Of a DNA stretch of 64,000 nucleotides, positions 17,018 through 27,876 are shown in pieces. This stretch comes from an uncultured bacterium (GTDB taxonomy: Bacteria > Cyanobacteriota > Vampirovibrionia > Gastranaerophilales > Gastranaerophilaceae). Location: positions 62,001-126,000 of the forward strand of contig CACZCH010000004.1 of assembly GCA_902779645.1 (NCBI GenBank). The letters are read 5' to 3'. The translations under genes and the position numbers were made by a program. Each line of letters starts with the position of its first letter. Within the stretch, counting starts at the first letter, position 1. The notes under the pieces were generated by a model, which did no database searches, was not told the DNA's origin, and saw nothing but the letters and a program-made list of their open reading frames with translations.

Positions 17018-17470
17018 ATGGGAATGGATGGTCTTTCTATTGCAAATACTGGTGCAATAAAAGAACAAACCTCAGCAGAATATACCAACAGGGTGGATCA
17101 GTCAATAGCATCTGACCCAGCAAATTCTGCACAACAAGTACATGGTTTAACAAATAACAAACGAGTTAAAGAAAAAGAAGAGGGCGAAGAATCAAACAAA
17201 AAACAAGGCAGAGGAGCTAATTCTCAAGCGGAGTTCAAAGACGGTCTTGTAGAAGAAAAACCCGAAGAAGAGCTTAATGATTTTGATGTTGAGGATTTTG
17301 AAAATCCTGACAGAGAATTTTATGTTAAATTAAATGTAAAGGATGATATAATAGAATTATACGATAGTTCGTCTGACAGATTAATTGAAACAATATCCGG
17401 TGATGAACTGGGACAGCTGGTACAAAAACTGAACATGGCTTCAGGAATATTCGTGAATAAGAAGGTATAA
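17018..17470 (+). CDS. FlaG-like flagellar protein
   Basis: 150 residues. The first ~90 are low-complexity, charged and probably disordered. The last ~55 (FYVKLNVKDDIIELYDSSSDRLIETISGDEL...) match FlaG: a beta hairpin, a 'D..T.EVIRQIP'-like strand and a closing GIFVNKKV strand. FlaG modulates filament length and attachment. AAAGGAAG site before ATG. It is followed after 1 base by fliS, the usual flagellar arrangement. Assignment rests on the C-terminal pattern plus context. Confidence 0.7.
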   Translation: MGMDGLSIANTGAIKEQTSAEYTNRVDQSIASDPANSAQQVHGLTNNKRVKEKEEGEESNKKQGRGANSQAEFKDGLVEEKPEEELNDFDVEDFENPDREFYVKLNVKDDIIELYDSSSDRLIETISGDELGQLVQKLNMASGIFVNKKV

Positions 17471-17471
17471 A

Positions 17472-17963
17472 ATGCCTGTTAATCCATACGCAAAATACAT
17501 TAAACAATATCAAACAAGCAATATCACAACTGCAACACCTGAAAAATTGATGATACTGCTTTTTGATGGTGCAATTCAGTTCCTTAAGAAAGCCAAAACC
17601 GCAATAGCGGAAAACGATTACAAAGCTCGTTCTGAGAATATTGACGGCGCAAGAAAGATTATAAGAGAATTTATGAGAACGATTGATTTGGAGAACGGTA
17701 ACGATGTTTCCAAACAATTATTTAAATTATACAATCGCATGGCAATGAATCTTATTAAAGCAAATGTACAAAGAAATAGTGAAAAAATAGACGAAGTAAT
17801 CGAAGATTTGTCTAATATTCGCTGGGGCTTCCAAAAAGCTATTGAGATTCAAAGCGGGGTTACAACTGTTGAAGATGCTCTAAAAGAGCAGGAAGCTTCA
17901 GAAAATGTTCAAAATCCTGCAATTAATGAAAATCCGGCACAAGGAGAAGAAAATGCAGAGTGA
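17472..17963 (+). CDS. fliS: Flagellin export chaperone FliS
   Basis: 163 residues. The N-terminal YAKYIKQYQT...ATPEKLMILLFDGAIQFL signature and the four-helix layout (LYNRMAMNLIKANVQRN) are typical. FliS binds the C-terminus of flagellin in the cytosol and prevents premature polymerisation. It carries a ~35-residue Glu/Asn-rich C-terminal extension beyond the usual ~125 residues. It overlaps the next gene by 11 bases. Flagellin itself is not in this window. Confidence 0.92.
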   Translation: MPVNPYAKYIKQYQTSNITTATPEKLMILLFDGAIQFLKKAKTAIAENDYKARSENIDGARKIIREFMRTIDLENGNDVSKQLFKLYNRMAMNLIKANVQRNSEKIDEVIEDLSNIRWGFQKAIEIQSGVTTVEDALKEQEASENVQNPAINENPAQGEENAE

Positions 17964-18330
17964 ACAACAGTTTAATCAGCTAATGATGCAGTATGAACAG
18001 CTTAAAAACGGTGCGATAGATATTGCAGCAATGATTGAGCGGGAGGATTATGATAGCGCAATTACCATGCTAAAATCACGTGAACAGTTATTTTTGAGCT
18101 GTAAGTGTATTCGCAGATATCTTGAATTAACTTCTGTACAACAAAAAGAAGCTGATAAAATTGTTGAAGAAATAAAAACTTTAGAACAGAATAATATTAA
18201 AAAATTAAAAGCAAACATGGATGCTGTTCAGTTAGAACTTGCTAAAACCCAGAAATCACAAAAAATCCAAAAAGCTTATAACAGTGACTTATCAAACTCC
18301 AACGGCAGTATTTTAAACATAGAAAAATAA
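17953..18330 (+). CDS. FliT-like small helical flagellar chaperone
   Basis: 125 residues starting at ATG 17953 with AAGGAGAAG upstream; an earlier in-frame ATG at 17905 lies deep in fliS and lacks a site. All-helical, glutamine/glutamate-rich, with the FliT-like pattern 'yeqL..gaidIa.mierEDyDsa..ml..RE.l' near residues 10-45. In enterobacteria FliT is the FliD chaperone and follows fliS; this position supports the call but sequence similarity is weak. Confidence 0.6.
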   Translation: MQSEQQFNQLMMQYEQLKNGAIDIAAMIEREDYDSAITMLKSREQLFLSCKCIRRYLELTSVQQKEADKIVEEIKTLEQNNIKKLKANMDAVQLELAKTQKSQKIQKAYNSDLSNSNGSILNIEK

Positions 18331-23895: not shown

Positions 23896-24080
23896 ACTCT
23901 TCTCCCAATTCTATGGTACGTTATAGAGCATGTGAGAGTAACGACCAAAGGGTTAAACTTTTTAGACCGAATGGTCTATTAAGTCATCCGAAAAATTAAA
24001 GTCATAAAAACTAAATCACAATAGAATTAATTGTTTTTGACTAATTATGTAACGTTTTGTAACAAATTCTTTAAAAACCC

Positions 24081-24107
24081 TAAAGTTTTTCAAAAAAATG
24101 CCGATAA
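24081..24107 (+). promoter_or_regulatory. Perfect sigma-28 (FliA) flagellar promoter
   Basis: TAAAGTTT at 24081-24088, 11-base spacer, GCCGATAA at 24100-24107: all 16 defined bases match the E. coli/Salmonella sigma-28 consensus with the canonical spacing. It lies ~100 bases upstream of the small gene at 24208. The 23896-24207 interval contains otherwise only the palindrome at 23963 and AT-rich sequence. Confidence 0.85.
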
Positions 24108-24207
24108 CTAAAATGTAAGGACAAAGAAGAATGAATTAATTATCTGAATAGTTGTTAATTAGGGAACAGTCGTAAAAGGAAAAACAGTAAAACAGAAGGA
24201 GTATGTA

Positions 24208-24390
24208 ATGGAACACTTAGATGAACAAGAAATGCTAATACAGTATTCTGAAATGTCAGCTTTCGATTTTAATTCTGAGGAGTTTCAAAGAGTACGTGAA
24301 GATTACTCGGAATGCAAGAATTTTATTACAAACATTGGATGGAAATTGAGTCGTTTAATTAACAAATTCACACCTGCAAGAAATTGCTAA
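24208..24390 (+). CDS. Small acidic orphan protein under sigma-28 promoter
   Basis: 60 residues, acidic N-terminal half (MEHLDEQEMLIQYSEM), then a basic helix (WKLSRLINKFTPARNC). No signal peptide or known domain. GAAGGAG ribosome site seven bases before ATG supports translation. First gene after the sigma-28 promoter, so predicted to be a late (class 3) flagellar or chemotaxis-linked gene product. Function unknown. Confidence 0.6.
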   Translation: MEHLDEQEMLIQYSEMSAFDFNSEEFQRVREDYSECKNFITNIGWKLSRLINKFTPARNC

Positions 24391-24447
24391 AACAGAATTC
24401 AGTCAGTATAAGTATTAAAGTATTACTAAATTTGAGGGACAAAGTGT

Positions 24448-24696
24448 ATGTCGAAAAAAGATTTTAACAATAACTGCTTTTCGCCGAATTGGCTTGAAGT
24501 CGACTTAAGCGAAAGTGCGAAAAGTAGAGAGGGTACATTTAATAAGGAGGTACGCCTAGAGAGCAAACAACGTAAAGACTTAAAAACATTATTAAAAGAG
24601 CTTGATGAAATCAAGAAAAACATTGAAAAAGCTGTGGAAAAGCAGCATCGTCTGGCAAACCTTGTCGGGTTTTATACCGGTGAACTTGCGCAATAG
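24448..24696 (+). CDS. Small coiled-coil orphan protein, second gene of the sigma-28 unit
   Basis: 82 residues. N-terminal half polar (FSPNWLEVDLSES), C-terminal half a strong coiled coil (KDLKTLLKELDEIKKNIEKAVEKQ). GAGGG upstream of ATG. It lies 57 bases after the first small gene and is followed by a terminator at 24729, so the two form a transcription unit. Possibly a flagellar chaperone- or regulator-like small helical protein, but no family is recognised. Confidence 0.6.
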   Translation: MSKKDFNNNCFSPNWLEVDLSESAKSREGTFNKEVRLESKQRKDLKTLLKELDEIKKNIEKAVEKQHRLANLVGFYTGELAQ

Positions 24697-24728
24697 CCGA
24701 TAAGCAGTCAGTGAAATTTTAGAACGGA

Positions 24729-24766
24729 AGCAGGCAGAAGTTATGAGATTCTGTCTGCTTTTGTTT
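24729..24766 (+). terminator. Rho-independent terminator of the sigma-28 unit
   Basis: AGCAGGCAGA at 24729-24738 pairs with TCTGTCTGCT at 24750-24759 (nine of ten), followed by TTTGTTTT. Confidence 0.75.
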
Positions 24767-24804
24767 TGTGATAGAATAAAGATTAAGAAGTTTGGAGCAA
24801 ACTA

Positions 24805-26013
24805 TTGGTTGAATTTGAAAATTTATATATTGAGGGGGATAATTTAGATGTACTCAGAAAAATACAAACGGAGTACAAAGATAAAATCCGTATGATTTAT
24901 ATCGACCCTCCGTATAATACAGGTAATGATTTTGTTTATAACGATTCTTTCAAGAATTGGGCTGATATGATTGCTCCAAGACTTGAGCTTGGACGGGAGT
25001 TATTGACTGATAACGGTGTAATATTTATATCTATTGGAGAAGAAGAGGTTGATACACTCAAAACAGTTTGCGATAGAATCTTTGGAAGAGAAAACTTTAT
25101 AACAAAATTTATTTATGAAAAAACTCAGCATTTCGGCAGACAAAAACTAAATGCTTATTCTAATGCTGAATATATTTTGTGCTATGCAAAGGAGCTTATC
25201 AAAAATGGTAAGATAAAAGAGCTTTTAGTTGAAGGGGTAAATACGAATCTGCTTGACGCGCCTTTATATAATGCGTCAAATAATCTTTCTGAGATTACAT
25301 TTCCTGCTGGAAGCGTAAAGTTTAATATTGAGGACGGTTTTTATACTAATACGACTTCGGATAAATATGTTTTAAAAAATAAGGTTAGAGTAAACGGAGG
25401 AAAGAATTTTAATGATTTTACGCTTTGTTTTCGCTCAAGATGGTCTGAAAAAACAGTAAAAGAAGAAATTGAAAAAGGTACGACTTTTTGGATAAAAACA
25501 ACAGACTTTGCAATTCGTGCTGTATATGCTGGCGGGCGTATATCTAAAAAAGCTCCGAAGCAGATAATTTTTACGAATCCTAAAAATCCTACAATTTCAA
25601 GGTTCGGTGAGCGTGTTACAACGAGTGAAACCGCTACTGCACATTTAGAAAAACTTATGGGCGGGAAATATTTTAATTACCCCAAAGCAGTATCACTTAT
25701 ATCTTATTTAATATCTTTGATTTTTGATGAGGAAACTCAAACTTTCCCCAATAATTTTACTGTTTTGGATTTCTTTTCAGGTTCAGGTACAACAGCTCAT
25801 GCTTGTATGCATCTAAATTCTTTAGATAACGGAGACAGGAAATTTATTCTTGTACAAAAACCAGAGATGCCTTCAAAAAATTCTCCGGCACAAAAAGCCG
25901 GATTCAAAACTATATGCGAGATAGGGAGAGAGAGAATCAAAAGAGCAGGTGAAGAAATTAAAAAGATTAATCCGAATGTGAATACAGAATTTATAATTTA
26001 TAATTGCAAATAA
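24805..26013 (+). CDS. Beta-class DNA adenine methyltransferase (type III Mod-like)
   Basis: 402 residues from a TTG start with GGAG seven bases upstream. Motif IV DPPY is at 34-37 (IYIDPPYNTGNDFVYND, as in type III Mod subunits), and the AdoMet-binding motif I FSGSGTTAHA comes later (~322), the beta-class order. The region between (~110-300) would hold target recognition. It is shorter than usual Mod proteins (~600) and has little sequence before motif IV. No res gene is adjacent. Methylates the N6 of adenine in a specific site, unknown here. Confidence 0.87.
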   Translation: MVEFENLYIEGDNLDVLRKIQTEYKDKIRMIYIDPPYNTGNDFVYNDSFKNWADMIAPRLELGRELLTDNGVIFISIGEEEVDTLKTVCDRIFGRENFITKFIYEKTQHFGRQKLNAYSNAEYILCYAKELIKNGKIKELLVEGVNTNLLDAPLYNASNNLSEITFPAGSVKFNIEDGFYTNTTSDKYVLKNKVRVNGGKNFNDFTLCFRSRWSEKTVKEEIEKGTTFWIKTTDFAIRAVYAGGRISKKAPKQIIFTNPKNPTISRFGERVTTSETATAHLEKLMGGKYFNYPKAVSLISYLISLIFDEETQTFPNNFTVLDFFSGSGTTAHACMHLNSLDNGDRKFILVQKPEMPSKNSPAQKAGFKTICEIGRERIKRAGEEIKKINPNVNTEFIIYNCK

Positions 26014-26851
26014 GAACTTCTTGTGTTTCTTTGTCTTTATTTTTACGTTGATAGCTGGAGTTATTGTAGCTTTTTTCTATATGTTTAACATTGTATTTTT
26101 TACTCCACCCAATAAGTTTAGTATTTTCTAATCCTTTATGAACCAATACATTCGAAAGTGCAAATTTTACATTCTTGCAATTCAAATAATCAAGTAATTC
26201 AAGAAGTTGTTCTTCCTCATTTCCCCCCCAGTTTTTAAATCCGCGTTTCCCGTCATTATATGAAGCATTTGATATTAAATACGGCGGGTCTGCATAAACA
26301 AAATCATTTTCCCCTAAATCCATATTGTATAAAAAAGTAAAATCTTTTGAATAAAATTTAATATTTTTACTTTGCAAAGCTTTTAAAAAATTAATTAAAT
26401 TCTCTTCTATTGTTTTATTGTATTCACTTCTCATTTTTCCGAACGGAGTATTAAATTCATGTCGTGAATTAAACCTTATTTGGTGATTAAAAGAATAACA
26501 AGTCAGTATAAACAAATCCAAAATGTTTTTTGTCTTGTTATATTCACTTCTCAGAGTTAAATATCCATCGATGTTATCTATGCTTAAAGAGAATTCTTTT
26601 ATGCGTGAGTAAATTTTGTCAATAACATTTGTTCCTTCTTTTTGAAAGTATTCAAACATTTGGGATAAAAATAGGTTGTGGTCGTTATATACAATACTTT
26701 TTGCTTTAACATTTATACCCACATTAAAACCGCCTCCAAAGAGGTCAATAAAAGTTCCAATGTTTTTAGGAAAACAAGGTATGATTGAGTCTAAAATTTT
26801 ATATTTGCCTCCTGTGTAGTTTAAAGGAGATTTGATATATTTTGACATCAT
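25991..26851 (-). CDS. D12-class (Dam-like) DNA adenine methyltransferase
   Basis: 286 residues. Alpha-class order: N-terminal NYTGGKYKIL, motif I FIDLFGGGFNVG near residues 34-45, motif IV ADPPY near 190. Transfers a methyl group from AdoMet to N6-adenine. The ATG overlaps the stop of the upstream methyltransferase gene as ATGA, with AAGGAAG as ribosome site, so the two are translationally coupled. The 3' end overlaps the convergent Mod-like gene by 23 bases. Confidence 0.87.
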   Translation of the reverse strand: MMSKYIKSPLNYTGGKYKILDSIIPCFPKNIGTFIDLFGGGFNVGINVKAKSIVYNDHNLFLSQMFEYFQKEGTNVIDKIYSRIKEFSLSIDNIDGYLTLRSEYNKTKNILDLFILTCYSFNHQIRFNSRHEFNTPFGKMRSEYNKTIEENLINFLKALQSKNIKFYSKDFTFLYNMDLGENDFVYADPPYLISNASYNDGKRGFKNWGGNEEEQLLELLDYLNCKNVKFALSNVLVHKGLENTKLIGWSKKYNVKHIEKSYNNSSYQRKNKDKETQEVLICNYKL

Positions 26852-27876
26852 ACTTCCTTCCTTGCATAAAAAATCAACTCTTTCAGATTACCTTCACAGT
26901 TACATTTCCCCCTGCATTTACCCCTGCTTTTGAACCTTCTGTAATCTATTTCATACATTTTATAGTTTGTACCGTATTTACACAGTACATTTTCTATTTC
27001 ATTTATCCCCATAAGTCCTTCCGTACTGTAACTCACAATGATATGTTTGAATTTTGCATTTTTAACTAAATCTTCAAAAGCATTTAGCACTACTTTCTTT
27101 TTACAGTAATCGGATTTTATTTCATTCTCTCTTATACCTGTTACACCTTTAAGAATAGGGAAATCATATTTTGCAACTGTTTCGAGGAGGTGATAATTAG
27201 ATGAGTATTGACGCTTGTTGTACGGCGGGTCGATATATAAAATATCTCCTTCAATATTTTTTATCAGAGTATTTGCGTCGGTGTTAAACGCGGTATTATT
27301 CTTTTTATTATCAAGAATTTCTATTTCTTTTAGTGTTAAATCCTTAAGCGCCCTTTTGTCCCAGAATTTGTTATAAGCTCCATAAGTTCCGGAAATATTT
27401 GAGACAAATGGTATTGCTTCAATTAAGACTGCAATCAAATAGTAAAATTCGGATTCATTTATCTTTTCTTTTTTTAACCAATCATTAATCTTAGTTCTTA
27501 TAAAGTCTATTTTTAGCGCGTTTTCTCCGCTAAGATACATTCTGCCTCCTGCGGGAGAGTAATTATTCAAGCAAAAACGCTTTTTATTGGGTAAACTTTC
27601 GATCTCATTTTCTTTTAAGTTATTAAAATACTCTACAGGATCAAATCCAAGCTTGTTAAAATTTGGTCTTATGTTATTTTCTATAACCCCTTTTTGGATA
27701 CAAAAAGAAAAATACATTAAGTCATTGGACAGGATTCTGAATCTGCTCTTAAAATAGTTTGCGACAGATGCCGTACCGGAAAAAATATCACAAAAAGATT
27801 CGGCAGATTCTATGTTTTCATCGATAACCCGCTCGATTTCTCCCAGTAATAACTTCTTACTCCCTATATAGCGCAT
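26848..27876 (-). CDS. Second D12-class DNA adenine methyltransferase
   Basis: 342 residues. RYIGSKKLLLGEI N-terminus, motif I CDIFSGTASVA near residues 29-39, motif IV IDPPYNKRQYSSNYHLLET near 210, typical of the larger M.FokI/M.MboII-like D12 enzymes. C-terminal RGKCRGKCNCEG gives three closely spaced cysteines that are unusual for the family. Coupled to the next methyltransferase; pairs of alpha-class enzymes commonly methylate the two strands of an asymmetric site. No ribosome site; TGATAAAAT lies six bases before ATG, suggesting a leaderless start. Confidence 0.87.
   Translation of the reverse strand: MRYIGSKKLLLGEIERVIDENIESAESFCDIFSGTASVANYFKSRFRILSNDLMYFSFCIQKGVIENNIRPNFNKLGFDPVEYFNNLKENEIESLPNKKRFCLNNYSPAGGRMYLSGENALKIDFIRTKINDWLKKEKINESEFYYLIAVLIEAIPFVSNISGTYGAYNKFWDKRALKDLTLKEIEILDNKKNNTAFNTDANTLIKNIEGDILYIDPPYNKRQYSSNYHLLETVAKYDFPILKGVTGIRENEIKSDYCKKKVVLNAFEDLVKNAKFKHIIVSYSTEGLMGINEIENVLCKYGTNYKMYEIDYRRFKSRGKCRGKCNCEGNLKELIFYARKEV

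What the first reader, a model, noticed from the sequence alone, without database searches (positions are those of the whole stretch)
24081..24766. Perfect sigma-28 promoter driving two unknown small genes
TAAAGTTT-N11-GCCGATAA matches the flagellar sigma-28 consensus at every defined base. It is followed by two small genes with good ribosome sites (60 and 82 residues) and a terminator. Genes under sigma-28 in other bacteria are late flagellar, chemotaxis or export-chaperone genes, so these two are candidates for undescribed flagellar components. The flaG-fliS-fliT-like trio is only 6 kb away.
Basis: partly seen in the sequence, partly recalled or inferred. Interest (0 to 1): 0.75.

Follow-up and report, generated by a model that had tools for sequence, protein, structure and literature searches.

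The report
Sigma-28 gene pair outside the flagellum
Two tiny unknown genes of a gut cyanobacterial relative are switched on by a real flagellar-type promoter, but the same genes, promoter and sigma factor persist in relatives that have no flagellin, alongside a second flagellum-like export machine, so they probably serve that machine rather than swimming.

Summary
TAAAGTTT-N11-GCCGATAA at 24081-24107 is exact and far above chance: 8 exact copies in the genome against 0 for the reversed pattern, 30 relaxed copies. It drives two real genes (60 and 82 aa), found as an adjacent pair in 32 of 33 congeners with the promoter conserved in front. The genome, a Gastranaerophilales MAG, has FliA and flagellins.

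Of 215 genomes with the 82-aa gene, 149 have no flagellin, and 100 flagellated genomes lack it. FliA is nonetheless found in 371 of 383 genomes, and a sigma-28-like promoter precedes the pair in 17 of 17 flagellin-less loci. Nearly all of 80 genomes tested carry a second FlhA, distinct from the flagellar one. In one flagellin-less genome it lies among FliE/F/H/J/K/M-N/O/P/Q/R, FlhB and rod genes.

Best reading: the pair is a FliA-regulon operon serving a second, filament-less flagellar-type export system, most likely as a small cytoplasmic helper (chaperone/adaptor) for exported proteins. Its biochemical role is unproven. Earlier papers read these leftover genes as flagellum loss.

The parts
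24048..24064 (+). Upstream direct repeat TGTAACG-N3-TGTAACA (10 bp period), candidate activator site or UP-like element
   Evidence: Sequence; TGTAACA within 65 bp upstream of 17 of 30 sigma-28 sites of this genome against 1.1% of background 65-mers, mostly at -22/-23 from the -35 box; TGTAA element also upstream of the pair in 15 of 17 flagellin-less loci
24081..24107 (+). Sigma-28 (FliA) promoter: -35 TAAAGTTT (24081-24088), 11-nt spacer, -10 GCCGATAA (24100-24107)
   Evidence: conserved upstream of the pair in all congeners examined and, degenerate, in 17 of 17 flagellin-less loci against 1.1% of control upstream regions
24196..24201 (+). Ribosome site AAGGAG of the first gene
   Evidence: Sequence; aligned ribosome sites in homologues
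24208..24390 (+). orf60, 60 aa, unknown small helical protein; conserved motif DExExx[IV]xYSEMxxFxFxS
   Evidence: Homologues in 33 of 57 relatives and 220 of 383 order genomes; alignment A2; AlphaFold2 pLDDT 82, helices 6-17 and 24-54; no Pfam, NCBIfam or PDB relative
24434..24439 (+). Ribosome site GAGGGA of the second gene
   Evidence: Sequence
24448..24696 (+). orf82, 82 aa, unknown; near-invariant N-terminal CFSPNWxExxL motif and C-terminal coiled-coil-like helix (45-77)
   Evidence: Homologues in 34 of 57 relatives and 215 of 383 order genomes; alignment A1; AlphaFold2 pLDDT 68; no family above cut-off
24720..24768 (+). Terminator-like hairpin
   Evidence: RNA fold -28 kcal/mol, z -3.5

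Best explanation
orf60-orf82 is a bicistronic operon of the FliA (sigma-28) regulon of Gastranaerophilales. In this clade the regulon is not restricted to the flagellum. It also serves a second, filament-less flagellar-type (type III) export apparatus that occurs beside the true flagellum in flagellated species and alone in flagellin-less ones. FliA transcribes the operon, probably helped by a factor or UP-like contact at the TGTAA repeat, together with genes for large unknown proteins and several other very small proteins. The two small helical proteins most likely act together in the cytoplasm as a two-part helper (export chaperone/adaptor) for substrates of the second apparatus. Shown: promoter, regulon of sites, pairing, conservation in flagellin-less genomes, second apparatus. 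Inferred: that FliA is the sigma factor used, that the second apparatus is what the pair serves, and the chaperone role.
For: Promoter and regulon. FliA in 371 of 383 genomes, flagellin in 166 of 383. Pair in 215-220 of 383, including 149 flagellin-less. Promoter before the pair in 17 of 17 flagellin-less loci, 1.1% in controls. A second FlhA kind in nearly all of 80 genomes; it is 84% identical between the window's genome and flagellin-less G060 but 37% identical to the flagellar FlhA of the same genome, so it is under constraint and not decaying. G060 holds FliE, FliF, FliH, FliJ, FliK, FliM/N, FliO, FliP, FliQ, FliR, FlhA, FlhB and FlgB/C/F/G. The window's genome also has the second FliE/FliF/FliH and FlhB. 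The G060 regulon repeats that of the window's genome: the pair, a 44-aa protein, a 51-aa protein, and the X90-subB operon about 6 kb from the second fliE-fliF-fliH-flhA cluster. An orf60 paralogue (40 aa) lies behind another sigma-28 site.
Against: No experiment. The pair is missing from several flagellin-less genera that have FliA and the second FlhA (g36, g38, g40, g43, g47, g51), so it is not an obligatory part of the second apparatus. It has no fixed neighbour and does not lie beside the export genes. A second sigma-28-like factor sits by the second flhB and could be the one used. The chaperone role rests on size, helicity and pairing only.
Confidence: 0.5

Rival explanations
1. One reading: the pair encodes late flagellar components (filament, chemotaxis or flagellar export chaperones).
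For: Perfect sigma-28 promoter shared with fliD and a flagellin gene; every genome of the window's genus that was searched has flagellin.
Against: 149 flagellin-less genomes keep the pair, with a sigma-28-type promoter in all flagellin-less loci read; 100 flagellated genomes lack it, among them G139 of the same genus, 99% complete.
Confidence: 0.08
2. The two small proteins are themselves exported: small secreted subunits (needle- or rod-like) or effectors of the second apparatus.
For: Late, flagellin-like promoter class; size and helicity recall T3SS needle or inner-rod subunits (general knowledge); other regulon members look like large exported proteins.
Against: A Cys in orf82 is invariant within the genus and kept in nearly all the other genera sampled, unusual for polymerising T3 substrates; no confident helical-hairpin fold; no PDB relative.
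Confidence: 0.2
3. One of the two is a feedback regulator of FliA (an anti-sigma factor replacing FlgM), made under FliA control.
For: FlgM is often under sigma-28 itself (general knowledge); a crude scan for a FlgM-like C-terminus found no credible candidate in the 94% of G060 held or in the parts of the window's genome scanned.
Against: No FlgM match in Pfam or NCBIfam; more than 150 of the genomes with FliA have no detectable pair.
Confidence: 0.12
4. The flagellar genes of flagellin-less species and the retained regulon are remnants of a lost flagellum, the pair a leftover.
For: Published reading of partial gene sets: Di Rienzi 2013 (PMC3787301) and Soo 2014 (PMC4040986).
Against: The retained FlhA is the second paralogue, 84% identical across genera and present beside an intact flagellar FlhA; promoters and small ORFs are conserved in all flagellin-less genera sampled.
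Confidence: 0.05

Closest known systems
Canonical FliA (sigma-28) late flagellar regulon
   Same: Same promoter grammar (TAAA-N15-GCCGATAA); fliD and a flagellin gene are in it here too; a clear FliA is encoded
   Different: Most targets are unknown proteins; the regulon and the pair survive without flagellin; many promoters carry an extra TGTAA repeat
Legionella oakridgensis FliA-FlgM kept without a flagellum (Tlapak 2017, described in PMC5655016)
   Same: FliA retained in a non-flagellated species
   Different: There the rest of the flagellar regulon is gone; here an export apparatus with rod genes is kept, across many genera
Flagellar-type T3SS of non-flagellated Lysobacter enzymogenes (PMC7277350)
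   Same: Export apparatus without a flagellin gene; it was shown to export a heterologous flagellin
   Different: Single lineage that lost its flagellum; here a second paralogous system is conserved even beside a full flagellum
Small T3SS chaperone pairs of the YscE-YscG/PscE-PscG kind (general knowledge)
   Same: Two small helical proteins from adjacent genes
   Different: No sequence relation detected; not tested for binding

Membership tests
Sigma-28 (FliA) dependent promoter | TAAA -35, about 15 nt, GCCGATAA -10, upstream of genes | tested here: met
Sigma-28 (FliA) dependent promoter | Cognate sigma factor in the genome | tested here: met
   FliA, TIGR02479 230 bits, above the curated cut-off
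Sigma-28 (FliA) dependent promoter | Transcription start 7-10 nt past the -10 and loss of it without FliA | not testable with these tools
   Needs RNA and genetics
Flagellar component | Distribution limited to flagellated genomes | tested here: not met
   149 flagellin-less genomes have the pair, 100 flagellated ones do not
Flagellar component | Homology to a known flagellar or chemotaxis family | tested here: not met
   No match for orf60 or orf82
FlgM anti-sigma factor | Match to FlgM models | tested here: not met
   None in Pfam or NCBIfam up to E = 1
Export chaperone (FliS/FliT/FlgN type) | Match to chaperone models | tested here: not met
   lowers 'is an X', not 'works like one'
Export chaperone (FliS/FliT/FlgN type) | Binds a substrate and the export gate | not testable with these tools
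   Needs pull-down or two-hybrid
Second flagellar-type T3SS (the machine proposed to be served) | FlhA, FlhB, FliP, FliQ, FliR and an MS-ring protein present without flagellin | tested here: met
   G060:
Second flagellar-type T3SS (the machine proposed to be served) | Distinct from the true flagellum where both occur | tested here: met
   Two FlhA and two FlhB in the window's genome; FlhA paralogues 37% identical, FlhA2 84% identical across genera; a second FliPQR set in the window's genome was not seen in the part held
Second flagellar-type T3SS (the machine proposed to be served) | Dedicated ATPase (FliI) | not tested
   About 6% of G060 (part of contig 4) could not be fetched; no FliI model was run

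The most novel reading that the evidence does not exclude
Gut Gastranaerophilales run a conserved second, filament-less flagellar-type secretion machine under FliA and a TGTAA-repeat element, with its own family of exported proteins; orf60-orf82 is a widely conserved small operon of that regulon and a dedicated two-part helper for it.
Probability: 0.45. Interest if true: 0.78.

Novelty: new variant of a known kind. Interest (0 to 1): 0.6.

Why it matters
Sigma-28 is the textbook flagellar sigma factor. Here an order of gut bacteria, many of them without flagellin, keeps sigma-28, its promoters and a flagellum-like export machine, and uses them on genes nobody has named. That changes the reading of these leftover flagellar genes from a dying flagellum to a probable working secretion system in common animal-gut bacteria. 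The conserved promoters also give a direct list of candidate exported proteins and helpers to test.

Tried and rejected
Pfam, NCBIfam, PHROGs and PDB searches with both proteins, singly or as profiles, gave nothing above cut-offs; weak hits such as SPT16 or IcmL are coiled-coil or chance. Foldseek of the orf60 model gave no match; the orf82 model was judged too uncertain to search. A link to the neighbouring TPR protein (best NCBIfam hits MamA and LcrH/SycD, below their cut-offs) was dropped because the neighbours of the pair are not conserved. The DNA methyltransferase genes downstream stay beside the pair in only a few close relatives. Scanning G060 small ORFs for FlgM through an alignment was dropped because the output would hide single hits; a regex gave no credible candidate. 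Looser sigma-28 patterns alone in G060 were near the reversed control (20 against 13), so only sites with the full -35, intergenic position or the TGTAA element were used.

Full report
1. Observation. The motif TAAAGTTTTTCAAAAAAATGCCGATAA lies at 24081-24107 exactly as described and is the only one in the window. In the whole genome (2.06 Mb, 40 contigs) the exact pattern occurs 8 times and its reversed control 0 times; 0.003 would be expected from base composition. With A or T at two -10 positions it occurs 30 times against 0. It is followed by an ORF of 60 aa (24208-24390) and one of 82 aa (24448-24696), each with a ribosome site, and by a strong hairpin at 24720-24768. FliS is certain and FlaG and FliT are likely at 17018-18330.

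2. Organism and sigma factor. Close relatives of orf82 in named records are Candidatus Gastranaerophilales MAGs, largely rumen-derived where the title tells, so this is a non-photosynthetic cyanobacterial lineage. FliA is present above the curated cut-off. Flagellins are present; one has the motif about 70 bp upstream, and fliD is preceded by another. These are internal positive controls.

3. The genes are real. Both proteins occur as an adjacent pair in 32 of 33 other genomes of the genus. In every congener locus examined the -35 TAAAGTTT and the 11-nt spacer are unchanged and the -10 is GCCGATAA, GCCGTTAA or a near variant. Profiles built from the genus then found orf82 in 215 and orf60 in 220 of 383 genomes of the order, all in the same family as the window's genome.

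4. The pair does not follow the flagellum. Over the same 383 genomes FliA is found in 371 and flagellin in 166. Counting by hand from the listed rows, 66 genomes have orf82 and flagellin, 149 have orf82 without flagellin, 100 have flagellin without orf82 and 68 have neither (odds ratio 0.30). The genomes are related by descent, so the P value should not be taken at face value; the direction is the point. Flagellin-less genera include many genomes 99% complete in few contigs, so gaps do not explain it.

5. The promoter persists without flagellin. In 17 of 17 flagellin-less loci a TAAAG-N13..16-CCG[A/T] site lies within 150 bp upstream of orf60, against 19 of 1676 control upstream regions (1.1%). 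The spacer is often one base longer there. A TGTAA repeat lies just upstream in most of them. In the window's genome the word TGTAACA occurs within 65 bp upstream of 17 of 30 sigma-28 sites against 1.1% of background stretches, usually 22-23 nt before the -35 box. In the window it is at 24058-24064, with a second copy (TGTAACG) at 24048-24054.

6. A second export machine. A search for the FlhA family found it in 80 of 80 genomes. There are two full-length kinds: one scoring near 1e-260, only in genomes with flagellin, and one near 1e-217, seen in the flagellin-less genomes too (the exception is G079, which shows only weaker matches). The second kind is 84% identical between the window's genome and flagellin-less genome G060 but only 37% identical to the flagellar FlhA of the same genome. 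In both genomes it sits in the order fliE-fliF-unknown-fliH-flhA. Pfam confirms in G060 FliE, FliF, FliH, FliJ (weak), FliK (weak), FliM/N, FliO, FliP, FliQ, FliR, FlhB and rod proteins of the FlgB/C/F/G kind, while FliD and flagellin have no homologue in the part held (flagellin). The window's genome has a second FlhB too, 78% identical to that of G060.

7. The regulon. In the window's genome the sites stand before fliD, flagellin, several tiny genes (40, 42, 51, 52 and 60 aa) and large unknown proteins, nearly all without a Pfam match. In G060 comparable promoters stand before the pair, homologues of the 42- and 52-aa proteins, the X90-subB operon whose homologues are sigma-28-driven in the window's genome, and large proteins of the MGMAASQAR type. 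So a core regulon is shared between a flagellated and a flagellin-less genome. A 40-aa protein behind another sigma-28 site is 56% identical over 32 aa to the C-terminus of an orf60 homologue, so orf60 has a paralogue in the regulon.

8. What the pair may do. AlphaFold2 gives orf60 two helices (pLDDT 82) and orf82 a confident C-terminal helix only (pLDDT 68). No sequence or fold relative is known. Two small helical proteins always made together, from a late promoter, fit a two-part export chaperone or adaptor; this is inference. Secreted subunits and an anti-sigma role remain open and are listed as rivals.

9. Literature. [quoted passage not shown] Soo 2014 (PMC4040986) inferred repeated loss of flagella from partial sets. 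Neither passage names a second system. Text searches for type III secretion in this group found no title or abstract on it; the hits were not read in full. Precedents elsewhere are FliA and FlgM kept in non-flagellated Legionella oakridgensis (PMC5655016) and a working flagellar-type export apparatus in Lysobacter (PMC7277350).

10. Limits. All evidence is comparative. The link between FliA and the second machine is by co-retention and shared regulon. Whether the flagellum of the window's genome has its own MS-ring, whether the second apparatus has its own ATPase, and which of two FliA-like sigma factors reads the promoter were not settled. Some flagellin-less genera with FliA and the second FlhA lack the pair, so it is a clade-level part and not a universal one.

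Noticed in passing
L217/L218 (genome contig 1, 216626-222547) and L210:13158-19136: Second fliE-fliF-unknown-fliH-flhA cluster conserved in flagellated and flagellin-less genomes; the unknown 340-346 aa protein sits where fliG would be expected but has no FliG match.
   Followed up: partly
L036 (genome contig 1, 285304-285966, minus strand) and G060 contig 2, 386829-387491: A second sigma-factor-like gene lies beside the second flhB in the window's genome (FliA/WhiG model at 79 bits, below the cut-off), and a sigma-like ORF directly follows flhB2 in G060.
   Followed up: partly
L213 (G060 contig 3, 317223-318701): A soluble protein of about 495 aa matching only the cytoplasmic part of FlhA; similar hits occur in most of the 80 genomes searched.
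   Followed up: no
L015, L008/L223, L018, L012 and L210:4560-7457: Family of sigma-28-driven proteins starting MGxxxSQxRxLxLTxR (108 to about 500 aa), unknown to Pfam; candidates for exported parts of the second machine.
   Followed up: partly
L016, L019, L022, L026: Large sigma-28-driven proteins with acidic, EF-hand-like N-termini (weak EF-hand hit in L022), without a Pfam match above cut-off where scanned.
   Followed up: no
window 24805-27876: Three DNA methyltransferase genes (one N6/N4 type, two Dam-type) directly downstream, kept beside the pair in several close relatives but not in other genera.
   Followed up: partly
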